The translations under genes were made by a program, and so were the position numbers. The notes beneath the pieces are model-generated. The model had not been told where the DNA came from and did not search any database. It saw only the letters and a program-made list of their open reading frames with translations. Positions 37,564 through 40,661 of a stretch of 51,067 bases of DNA are shown here, piece by piece (the first letter of the stretch is position 1; each line of letters opens with the position of its first letter). Source of the stretch: Moraxella sp. (GTDB lineage: Bacteria > Pseudomonadota > Gammaproteobacteria > Pseudomonadales > Moraxellaceae); NCBI GenBank assembly GCA_030530785.1, contig JAUMUJ010000013.1:1-51067 (forward strand), given 5' to 3'.

Positions 37564-38901
37564 ATGAGTATTTATCACGACCATCTGACCAAACGCCAAA
37601 CCCAAGAAGCCCAAGCCACCGAACTGCTTGTCGCCCTTGCCAAGCTGTCTGCCCAAAACGTGAACGTGCTGTTTTTGGGCGAGCGTGTGGCTTTGTCGGT
37701 GTCGGACATTTTGACCAAGCACACCAAAGCGTCTCTTGATGTGGCAGATACGCTTGCCTTTGCCAAAGAGCTTGATGTGGCGGACACCACTGTGGATTTG
37801 GGGCAGGCGGTTAAAGCAGGCAAACAGCCCAGCGACTTTACCAGTGGTCAAGCCGTCCCCAGTACTGATGTGGTGCTATATGGCTTTGGGCGTATCGGTC
37901 GCTTGCTCGCTCGCTTACTGATGAGCCGTCCTGCATCAGATAAGGGCTTACAATTAAAAGCGATTGTGATTCGTCCCGCAGGAGATGGCGACCTTGCCAA
38001 ACGTGGCAGTTTACTAGAACGTGATAGTGTGCATGGTTGGTTTGACGGTTCGGTTGAGATTGATACTGCCAACAGTGGTATCATCGCCAACGGTCGCTTT
38101 ATTAAGTTTATCTATGCGTCCGACCCTAGCGAGATTGACTATACTGCTCACGGCATTGATAAAGCCATCGTGATTGATAATACGGGTAAATGGAAGGACG
38201 AAGCAGGGCTTGGCAAGCATTTGGCAAGCAAAGGGGTGAAAAAAGTCCTACTCACCGCCCCTGCCAAAGGCGACATCAAAAACATCGTCTATGGCGTAAA
38301 CCACGACGCCATCGGGGGCGATACCATCGTCTCGGCAGCGTCTTGCACCACCAATGCCATCACGCCCACGCTCAAAGTATTACACGACACTTATGGCATC
38401 GTAAACGGACACATGGAGACCGTTCATGCCTTTACCAATGACCAAAATTTGGTGGATAATCACCATAAATCTGACCGTCGTGGTCGCTCTGCTCCACTTA
38501 ACATGGTCATGACGTCCACAGGGGCGGCATCTGCGGTGTCAAAAGCCATTCCAGAACTCAAAGGCAAGCTGACAGGCAATGCCATTCGTGTGCCAACCCC
38601 CAACGTATCTTTGGCGATTTTAAATCTAAACTTTGATAAAGTGGTGGGTTCTGCTGATGAGTTAAACGCCTTTATGAAAGACAAATCACAAAGCGAACAG
38701 TGGCAAGAGCAAATCGCCTATTCAGACAGCACAGAAGCGGTCTCCACAGACTTTGTGGGTTGTGAAAAAGTGGCAATTTTTGATGCTAAGGCAACCATCG
38801 CCACCGACAACCGTGCCACCTTGTATGTTTGGTACGATAACGAGATGGGATACAGCACGCAGGTGCTAAGAGTGGCAGAAGTCATGGCAACCAACGGCTA
38901 A
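37564..38901 (+). CDS. gap: Glyceraldehyde-3-phosphate dehydrogenase (long N-terminally extended form)
   Basis: This enzyme interconverts glyceraldehyde-3-phosphate and 1,3-bisphosphoglycerate. The NAD-binding motif YGFGRIGRLLARLL begins near residue 101, and the active-site Cys is in SAASCTTNAITP at about 261. The C-terminal YDNEMGYS is conserved. About 100 extra residues precede the Rossmann fold, as in the long GapB-like enzymes of Pseudomonas and Acinetobacter. Because Moraxella-type organisms lack a full glycolysis, a gluconeogenic role is likely (inference). It is monocistronic with a strong terminator. Confidence 0.95.
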   Translation: MSIYHDHLTKRQTQEAQATELLVALAKLSAQNVNVLFLGERVALSVSDILTKHTKASLDVADTLAFAKELDVADTTVDLGQAVKAGKQPSDFTSGQAVPSTDVVLYGFGRIGRLLARLLMSRPASDKGLQLKAIVIRPAGDGDLAKRGSLLERDSVHGWFDGSVEIDTANSGIIANGRFIKFIYASDPSEIDYTAHGIDKAIVIDNTGKWKDEAGLGKHLASKGVKKVLLTAPAKGDIKNIVYGVNHDAIGGDTIVSAASCTTNAITPTLKVLHDTYGIVNGHMETVHAFTNDQNLVDNHHKSDRRGRSAPLNMVMTSTGAASAVSKAIPELKGKLTGNAIRVPTPNVSLAILNLNFDKVVGSADELNAFMKDKSQSEQWQEQIAYSDSTEAVSTDFVGCEKVAIFDAKATIATDNRATLYVWYDNEMGYSTQVLRVAEVMATNG

Positions 38902-38910
38902 TTTAAAAAA

Positions 38911-38937
38911 AACACGCTCAACATTGGGCGTGTTTTT
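38911..38937 (+). terminator. Terminator of gap
   Basis: Stem aacacgctc / gggcgtgtt (one G-U pair) with a 6-base loop, then a run of T. Confidence 0.85.
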
Positions 38938-38965
38938 TTAATCATCACAGTGATGGAGTGTGCAG

Positions 38966-39612
38966 ATGTATAAGTTGTGTATGATTATTTGGGCGATGAT
39001 GAGTGTGTTGGTGTTGTCTTTGGTGTCGCCGGCGATTGCTAATAATCAACCCTGAAATAACAGTTATCAAGGAGTAAGGTATGGTAATAATGTCTTTGAT
39101 GAAAGTTTTAGAACCGTAGAAGCGGATAGGGAAGGTCAGAAAGTGATTGAAGCTATGGAAGGGGTTATTTCTGAGGATAGGTCTCTGGCAGCAAACATTA
39201 TGTTGCATAAAAACAGGACAGTAAGCGTTGGGCTATCTGGAAATGTAAGGAATGAAAAGACACAACAAAATATGCAAAACCTTCAAAGCGTATTGGATAG
39301 AAAGTATGGCTCTGGTCGTTATAAGGTTGGATTTAATACATTGGGAGAAAATCAGGGTTTGGTTCAAGTTAAGGATAGCAATATGGTTGGTTTATGTGCC
39401 GAACCTAAATGTACTTGATTGCCAAGTCAAATCCTAGCCCTGTAATTGGGTTTGCCATTATTTGGCGTGGAAAAAGAAGTAACCCTTATCCCATTAAGCC
39501 CAGTGAGGCTAAAAAAAGAGGGTTAAGTGTCAATCAAATGTATATGTGTGCTACTTGTCAGGCAAGCAAATCAGCTTATGAAAAATACATTAATAATTCT
39601 AGTAAAAAATAA
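38966..39612 (+). pseudogene. Broken secreted deaminase-like polymorphic toxin
   Basis: The gene starts at ATG 38966 behind a GGAG site with a signal peptide (MYKLCMIIWAMM then SVLVLSLVSPAIA). An in-frame TGA at 39053 follows codon 29, and the same frame then continues without a stop to 39418 (FDESFRTVEADREGQ through VGLCAEPKCT). A frameshift near 39415 leads into the frame LIAKSNPSPVIGFAIIWRG, which ends with MCATCQASKSAYEKYI and stops at 39612. The CAE motif and the later CxxC are spaced like the zinc site of YwqJ-type nucleic-acid deaminase toxins. An immunity-like gene follows directly. Two lesions make it non-functional unless there are sequence errors. The deaminase call is by motif only. 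Confidence 0.6.
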
Positions 39613-39621
39613 GGATTTTAT

Positions 39622-40228
39622 ATGACCATTCTTAACCAACTTATTAACCTAATGCTCCAAAAAGTGGAAGTAAAACCCGTTCCCAAACAAGAACTTGATG
39701 ACTTTTTATCACAACATGGCATTAAGATTTGTGATGAATATTATCAGTTTTTATTAAATTATGGGAACAGTGATTTTTTAATAAGTAATTTTGCTGATTT
39801 AAGGTTTGGGGAATTTATATTATACTGATGATAAACTTCTTGATGATGCCAAATTACCAAGTGGTTATCATTACGTTGGTATAGATTTTAATGATGTGCC
39901 ATTATGTAAAAGTAATAGTAAAAGGAGTATCTACACATTTGGATATGGTCATACAGATGGCATTCCCTATTATGGTGGAATAAAAGAATTATTATTTTTT
40001 AGTCTGCTTAGGTCATTAGATGATAAAATTTGTTTTGATGATTGTGTGCTAAACACAAAAATAGAAAATAAAGATATTTTTAAAAATTATGAAATTAAAG
40101 ACGTGCATACTCATTGTAGATATTTTTTTAAAGACAATCAATTGATTGCTTGTGATGGTGAATTCTATTATTATAATATCTATAAGGGTGGTATTCTAGA
40201 TTTGGTGGTTGACGATGATTGTGTTTAA
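39622..40228 (+). pseudogene. Frameshifted SUKH/SMI1-KNR4-like immunity protein
   Basis: ATG 39622 has AAGGA upstream and encodes QELDDFLSQHGIKICDEYYQ then FLLNYGNSDF, the start of a SUKH-like immunity fold. The frame stops at 39828. From about 39806 a second frame continues as YYTDDKLLDDAKLPSGYHYV, then FGYGHTDGIPYYGGIKELL, to 40228, so a single-base indel near 39805-39825 splits one gene of about 200 codons. It follows the toxin remnant by 9 bases, the usual toxin-immunity order. The family assignment is by pattern and is moderate. Confidence 0.6.
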
Positions 40229-40281
40229 GGTAAGATTGTGCTAGAATGAAGTTGATGTATATTGATTTAAAAAGGTGCTTT

Positions 40282-40635
40282 ATGAAAAAAGTGTTATTGG
40301 CGTTTTTGGCATGTGCTTTAATAGTTCCGATGGCTCATGCCAACCCTAAAACCACCACTTTAAGATTTGCCAAAGGAAGTTATTGTACGAGCTTTACAGG
40401 ATATTATCACAACCGTATCTTTAAAATTTATCTACTCCCCAAGCAAACGCTTGAAATTAGGACGAACGATGTCGTAGAAGACGTACTGGTCAAAGACCCC
40501 ACAGGCAGAATGCTGACAGACGTTGGCGAAGAAAATTATAATTACCGCATTCGTCAAAAGGGCAATCACACCATTAAGATTAACCGAGCCAGCATTAACG
40601 GTGGTAGCGACACCATTGAATTTTGTGCGTATTGA
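40282..40635 (+). CDS. Small secreted hypothetical protein
   Basis: A 17-20-residue signal peptide (MKKVLLAFLACALIVPMAHA) is followed by a roughly 97-residue beta-rich domain with two cysteines (SYCTSFTG and the final FCAY), which could form a disulfide. The pattern LRFAKGS at the start and a Gly-Asn-His-Thr-Ile strand near the end resemble small periplasmic beta-sandwich proteins; a lysozyme-inhibitor-like role is only a guess. ATG 40282 (AAAGG upstream) is chosen over ATG 40246. It looks intact, unlike the two genes before it. Confidence 0.7.
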   Translation: MKKVLLAFLACALIVPMAHANPKTTTLRFAKGSYCTSFTGYYHNRIFKIYLLPKQTLEIRTNDVVEDVLVKDPTGRMLTDVGEENYNYRIRQKGNHTIKINRASINGGSDTIEFCAY

Positions 40636-40638
40636 TAA

Positions 40639-40659
40639 AAAGCCCCACGATGGGGCTTT
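40639..40659. terminator. Terminator between the secreted protein and pncB
   Basis: Nine-bp stem aaagcccca / tggggcttt with a 3-base loop, between convergent stops. Confidence 0.8.
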
Positions 40660-40661
40660 GA

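What the first reader, a model, noticed from the sequence alone, without database searches (positions are those of the whole stretch)
38966..40228. Relic polymorphic-toxin module: secreted CAE/CxxC deaminase-like toxin plus SUKH-like immunity gene
Three lesions in 1.26 kb hide what looks like a compact toxin-immunity pair. The toxin has a signal peptide, an in-frame TGA after codon 29 and a frameshift; across them one reads a GLCAEPKC motif and, about 50 residues on, MCATC, the layout of YwqJ-like nucleic-acid deaminases. The adjacent frameshifted ORF resembles SUKH immunity proteins. The toxin is very short (about 215 codons) and has its own signal peptide, without the long adhesin or Rhs stalk usual for such toxins. 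That is either an orphan cassette or a mini-toxin exported by Sec. This is the best candidate in the window for an undescribed system.
Basis: partly seen in the sequence, partly recalled or inferred. Interest (0 to 1): 0.72.

Follow-up and report, generated by a model that had tools for sequence, protein, structure and literature searches.

The report
Decayed secreted toxin–immunity gene pair
A short stretch of this bacterial genome holds the broken remains of a small, apparently secreted toxin-like gene and its protective partner, probably once used against rival bacteria; a second, also damaged copy sits elsewhere in the same genome, and the chemistry of the toxin is still open.

Summary
The frames and three lesions described at 38966-40228 are there. 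They are coding remains: the same genome carries a diverged copy of the whole cassette on contig C8 (toxin pieces 57% and 63% identical, E 1.2e-39 and 1.2e-24), and both its genes are damaged too. The partner is SUKH-like: weak SUKH hits in 4 of 7 stretches scanned, all below cut-off. A relative of the toxin domain in another genus (G311) precedes a SUKH-like gene and lies 1.3 kb behind a PT-VENN fragment, as in orphan CDI arrays. CAEPxC is kept in 4 of 4 copies, CxTC in 3 of 3 that hold it. The deaminase reading is only suggestive: one sub-threshold PF00383 hit, no YwqJ match, two unusable models. A signal-peptide-like start and a short, stalkless build occur in both copies. Verdict: a degenerate cassette of a rare toxin-like family; modest interest.

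The parts
37564..38901 (+). flanking intact gene, glyceraldehyde-3-phosphate dehydrogenase-like (gap); not part of the cassette
   Evidence: 445-aa ORF; name recalled from its sequence; a similar ORF ends just before the corresponding interval in G015 (L069)
38906..38939 (+). inverted repeat ending in a T run, terminator-like, between gap and the cassette
   Evidence: 16-nt arms, 94% complementary, 2 nt apart; sequence; the consensus scan did not list it
38966..39055 (+). signal-peptide-like piece of the toxin-like gene, ended by an in-frame TGA
   Evidence: 12 of 28 residues identical to the corresponding stretch of the C8 copy; judged by eye, no predictor was available
39056..39418 (+). toxin piece 1 (mature N-terminal part, CAEPKC at 39395-39412), ends at TGA 39416-39418
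   Evidence: 57% identity to the C8 copy, E 1.2e-39
39409..39612 (+). toxin piece 2 in another frame, CATC at 39547-39558
   Evidence: 63% identity to the C8 copy, E 1.2e-24
39622..39828 (+). SUKH-like immunity gene, N-terminal piece
   Evidence: 71% identity to the C8 gene, 75% to the G015 gene; SUKH_5 at E 0.065, below cut-off
39806..40228 (+). SUKH-like immunity gene, C-terminal piece in another frame
   Evidence: 46% identity to the C8 gene, 53% to the G015 gene; no Pfam hit of its own
40246..40635 (+). flanking small secreted-type protein gene, open; not part of the cassette
   Evidence: matches in 9 of 22 genomes of the genus, own included; none of the other 8 has a toxin match at E 0.001

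Best explanation
The locus is the decaying remains of a two-gene polymorphic toxin-immunity cassette. The first gene encoded a small toxin with its own Sec signal peptide and a mature region of about 185 residues with no stalk; the second encoded a cytosolic SUKH-type immunity protein. The toxin domain is most likely a zinc-dependent enzyme acting in the cytosol of rival bacteria, with a nucleic-acid deaminase as the leading guess: the Cys of CAE and the two Cys of CxxC would hold zinc and the Glu would move the proton. The SUKH protein would bind the toxin and protect the producer. Shown here: coding homology, gene pairing, the lesions, weak SUKH resemblance, conserved cysteines and glutamate, and linkage of a relative to a CDI-type pre-toxin fragment. 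Inferred: toxicity, Sec export, target, deamination, entry into a neighbour, and that the loss is fairly recent (the pieces carry no further stops).
For: Second cassette with the same gene order and spacing on C8. Rough codon comparison: NG86 dN/dS 0.21 for toxin piece 1, 0.20 and 0.46 for the SUKH pieces, with dS 0.9-1.8; not computable for toxin piece 2. SUKH-family hits in 4 of 7 stretches scanned, E 0.0025-0.065. The G311 relative (45% identity, E 2.7e-16) is followed by a SUKH-like gene and preceded by PT-VENN at E 2.2e-12. A related SUKH-like gene in G021 (E 2.5e-8) lies between an ORF with VENN read by eye (no Pfam hit) and an EndoU ORF at E 7.6e-06. CAEPxC kept in 4 of 4 copies, CxTC in 3 of 3 that hold the stretch. 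The G311 copy matches PF00383 across both motifs (E 0.039 and 0.022); 0 of 10 shuffles that kept the motifs did. Deaminase toxins with [HCD]xE and CxxC, some with SUKH partners, are described in PMC3482391 (passages).
Against: PF00383 was hit in 1 of 3 copies scanned, below its cut-off, and the hit vanished when the G311 stretch was trimmed to 89 residues. The C8 copy drew a weak zinc-finger hit instead (PF23145, E 0.0033-0.0092). No NCBIfam hit worth naming. No YwqJ or Pput2613 match in G000; the XOO_2897 search rang nowhere and is uninformative. AlphaFold models have mean pLDDT 46.7 and 39.0; Foldseek found nothing at E 0.001 or better. The protein ends about 20 residues after CxxC, leaving little room for the last strands of a deaminase fold (by eye, fold recalled). 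All SUKH hits are below cut-off and 3 of 7 stretches had none. The C8 toxin domain itself is open, so whether it is dead is not shown. Toxicity is untested.
Confidence: 0.5

Rival explanations
1. Same decayed toxin-SUKH cassette, but the toxin is not a deaminase: the four constant cysteines (two in CAEPxC, two in CxxC) form a structural zinc site in a nuclease or other toxin domain.
For: The second Cys of CAEPxC is constant in 4 of 4 copies; the C8 copy draws a weak zinc-finger hit; no deaminase family reaches its cut-off; SUKH proteins are described as partners of 18 nuclease families (PMC3482391 passages).
Against: The Glu of CAE is as constant as the cysteines; a beta hairpin precedes it in both models (low confidence); the G311 copy's one Pfam hit was a deaminase family.
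Confidence: 0.33
2. The genes are intact in the living organism and the lesions are sequencing or assembly errors.
For: The genome is a draft (57 contigs, completeness 86.92%), and one C8 lesion lies at a run of T.
Against: Both cassettes, at two places, are damaged in both genes, while 85.3% of the window lies in ORFs of 150 codons or more and the C8 neighbours are open. One window lesion is a nonsense codon, and no run longer than four bases lies in the 30 bases printed around each window lesion.
Confidence: 0.1
3. Not a toxin: a secreted cysteine-containing protein of unknown role next to a SUKH-fold protein of cellular function.
For: No toxin family model reaches its cut-off in any copy scanned; toxicity untested.
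Against: Patchy presence (3 of 348 family genomes that I accept), different chromosomal places, and a relative next to SUKH-like genes behind a PT-VENN fragment.
Confidence: 0.07

Closest known systems
Orphan CDI toxin-immunity modules (cdiA-CT/cdiI; PMC3150448, passages seen)
   Same: Short toxin domain followed directly by a small immunity gene, patchy, often broken; the G311 relative lies 1.3 kb behind a PT-VENN fragment
   Different: The two copies in this genome have a signal-peptide-like start and no VENN pre-toxin piece in the pieces scanned
Toxin deaminases of polymorphic toxin systems (PMC3482391, passages seen), YwqJ family PF14431
   Same: CxE, then CxxC about 50 residues on; SUKH proteins are listed as partners of some deaminase families
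   Different: No profile match to PF14431 in G000; extra constant Cys; short C-terminal end; fold not shown
SUKH immunity proteins (PF09346, PF14567)
   Same: Weak concordant hits in 4 of 7 stretches, position right after the toxin gene, no signal-peptide-like start by eye
   Different: All hits below the curated cut-offs
MafB toxins of Neisseria (PMC3482391, PMC9970974; passages seen)
   Same: Signal peptide on a polymorphic toxin with an adjacent immunity gene
   Different: No MafB N-terminal domain: mature region only about 185 residues, no such Pfam hit

Membership tests
YwqJ-type deaminase (PF14431) | profile match | tested here: not met
   No match in G000 at E 0.001 (it rang in the B. 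subtilis control and in G018 and G021); no hit for the pieces or copies scanned
YwqJ-type deaminase (PF14431) | profile-profile similarity to family members | tested here: not met
   hhalign probability 0.1 against three YwqJ-type rows; both profiles shallow
Deaminase superfamily | [HCD]xE and CxxC zinc motifs, conserved | tested here: met
   CAE in 4 of 4 copies, CxxC in 3 of 3 that hold the stretch
Deaminase superfamily | deaminase fold | tested here: inconclusive
   Models at mean pLDDT 46.7 and 39.0; PF00383 E 0.022-0.039 in 1 of 3 copies, lost on a shorter trim
Deaminase superfamily | deaminase activity | not testable with these tools
   needs a bench assay
SUKH immunity | SUKH profile match | tested here: inconclusive
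   SMI1_KNR4 or SUKH_5 in 4 of 7 stretches, E 0.0025-0.065, all below cut-off; none in NCBIfam
SUKH immunity | gene directly downstream of the toxin gene | tested here: met
   in the window, on C8 and in G311; no SUKH match in G006; alone in G015
Orphan CDI module | VENN pre-toxin piece upstream | tested here: not met
   none in the window's or the C8 toxin pieces; PT-VENN near the G311 relative
MafB toxin | MafB N-terminal domain after the signal peptide | tested here: not met
   no such Pfam hit and no room for it

The most novel reading that the evidence does not exclude
A toxin family absent from the profile libraries used, defined by CAEPxC and CxxC, that travels as a stalkless protein with its own Sec signal peptide and a SUKH partner, and whose domain also turns up in CDI-type arrays of a related genus: a link between freely secreted and contact-dependent toxins.
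Probability: 0.35. Interest if true: 0.5.

Novelty: new variant of a known kind. Interest (0 to 1): 0.3.

Why it matters
If right, it adds an unlisted toxin domain family and shows a short signal-peptide build for a domain that elsewhere sits in a CDI-type array, which raises the question of how so small a secreted protein would enter a rival cell. Because both copies in this genome are damaged and relatives are rare, it is of modest use as a system to study here.

Tried and rejected
Distribution searches that confirmed no further relative: genome contigs (66 and 93 pattern matches, none confirmed), viral contigs (and 91 with the SUKH gene), plasmids (and 90 with the SUKH gene), phages. In 57 relatives 2 matched, in 22 genomes of the genus 2, in 369 of the class and 398 of the phylum only the own genome. 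In the family search 21 of 348 genomes matched at E 0.1 and 27 of 348 at E 0.05; I accept three (G000, G006, G311). I listed ORFs, above lengths of 60 to 400 codons, for loci of G034, G022, G195, G329, G334 and a second G311 locus and saw no such gene; three of them carry a beta-ketoacyl-synthase-like ORF (name recalled) over the place. The other weak matches were not opened.

Structure: two AlphaFold jobs gave no usable model; the Foldseek list of the first is treated as meaningless, including an RNase A-fold toxin at rank 33 (E 0.12). Sequence search of solved structures gave nothing credible. Programmed recoding or phase variation was considered and dropped: the lesions differ between the copies. 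No promoter claim is made (13 sites against 7.9 expected).

Print: six searches (listings) named no such family, but a text search cannot find an unnamed sequence family. The 2011 deaminase survey (PMC3239186) is not held; what I say of the deaminase fold and YwqJ layout beyond searches is recalled.

Full report
What is there. The window stretch 38966-40228 holds, on the + strand, a signal-peptide-like piece ended by TGA at 39053-39055, a mature piece in the same frame to 39418 with CAEPKC, a piece in another frame with CATC (39409-39612), and two overlapping SUKH-like pieces (39622-39828 and 39806-40228). A terminator-like inverted repeat (38906-38939; not listed by the consensus scan) separates them from the gap-like gene, and an open small secreted-type gene follows. 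G+C is 37.7% over the toxin pieces and 28.2% over the SUKH pieces, against 44.4% for the window and 50.1% for the gap-like gene; on C8 it is 40.7% and 25.2%. This suits an acquired cassette.

It is coding remains, not chance. Toxin piece 1 finds one other place in the same genome, C8:27120-27467, at E 1.2e-39 and 57% identity; piece 2 matches the same gene at E 1.2e-24 and 63%. The SUKH pieces match the gene that follows it (71% and 46%), with the same 9-base gap between toxin stop and SUKH start in both places. NG86 dN/dS is 0.21 for toxin piece 1, 0.20 and 0.46 for the SUKH pieces and 0.59 for the signal-peptide stretch (0.31 by YN00); toxin piece 2 could not be computed, YN00 failed on the rest, and dS of 0.9-1.8 is high for three of these, so the values are rough.

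The C8 copy is damaged too. Its signal-peptide-like stretch and its mature stretch lie in different frames, and its SUKH gene ends early while matching sequence continues in another frame. The C8 toxin domain itself is open over 183 codons, so it could in principle still be made without export. Both genes of both cassettes are thus affected, while neighbouring genes on C8 are open and 38902-40661 is the longest part of the window without an ORF of 150 codons. Decay is more likely than sequencing error, but the genome is a draft of 86.92% completeness and raw reads were not available.

Relatives. Among 348 genomes of the family I accept three with the toxin domain: the own genome, G006 of the same genus and G311 of another genus; other weak matches were opened only in part. 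The G006 piece is a fragment beside sulfonamide-resistance-like and aminoglycoside-acetyltransferase-like ORFs (names recalled from the sequences), with no SUKH match in that genome. The G311 copy lacks the N-terminal part and is followed by a SUKH-like gene and a second, shorter one; 1.3 kb upstream lies a PT-VENN fragment at E 2.2e-12. SUKH relatives occur in 3 of 22 genomes of the genus: the own genome; G015, where an open 203-codon gene stands without a toxin match between radA-like and thioesterase-like genes (names recalled); and G021, where a distant one lies between an ORF with VENN read by eye and an EndoU ORF. In G015 the interval behind the gap-like gene carries a different small gene, followed by the relative of the 40246 gene, so the cassette's site is variable.

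What the toxin is. CAEPxC is present in 4 of 4 copies and CxTC in 3 of 3 that hold that stretch, while identity to the C8 copy is otherwise 42-63%. The other test (a deaminase-fold hit) is not clearly passed. The G311 copy hits PF00383 at E 0.039, or 0.022 when trimmed to 108 residues, below the cut-off, and not at all when trimmed to 89. Of 10 shuffles that kept both motifs, 0 hit a deaminase model and 2 had some other weak hit. The C8 copy and the window pieces do not hit it; C8 draws a weak zinc-finger hit instead. YwqJ is not supported. The structure models are too poor to use. The second Cys of CAEPxC is constant, and the protein ends about 20 residues after CxxC; both fit a four-cysteine zinc site as well as a short deaminase. 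I put the cassette-with-deaminase reading at one in two.

How it would work. The signal-peptide-like stretches of both copies are alike (12 of 28 residues identical), with a hydrophobic core and an A-x-A end, judged by eye. The SUKH product starts without one. The simplest scheme is Sec export of a small toxin, entry into a rival by an unknown route, attack on a cytosolic target, and protection of the producer's cytosol by the SUKH protein. Toxicity, export, entry, target and chemistry are inference. Sec-dependent polymorphic toxins, SUKH proteins as partners of deaminases, and orphan CDI modules are described (PMC3482391 passages; PMC3150448 passages).

Verdict. It is a rare variant, not in the libraries searched, of a known kind of system, of modest interest.

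Noticed in passing
L003 1402-1623 (-), 1860-2675 (+), 2789-3121 (+): In G006 a fragment of the same toxin-like family lies directly beside Sul2-like and AAC(3)-like ORFs (names recalled); described only.
   Followed up: partly
L030 6548-8083 (-): On contig C8, some 4 kb from the second cassette, two similar ORFs of 156 and 157 codons (MHPEILEYD... and MYPEILEYD...) with a third ORF between them; no Pfam hit at E 0.01.
   Followed up: partly
L085 1417-3231 (-) and L086 1-1254: G018 carries a large protein with a YwqJ-type deaminase end (HAE, CxxC) and G021 a fragment of one, each followed by a similar 318-324-aa gene.
   Followed up: partly
window 40246-40635: Small secreted-type protein with matches in 9 of 22 genomes of the genus, own included, in several of them more than one.
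   Followed up: no
L027 15397-17032: In G311 a short membrane-type ORF is duplicated and one copy runs into the toxin fragment at a shared FGKY stretch, suggesting recombination within the array.
   Followed up: no
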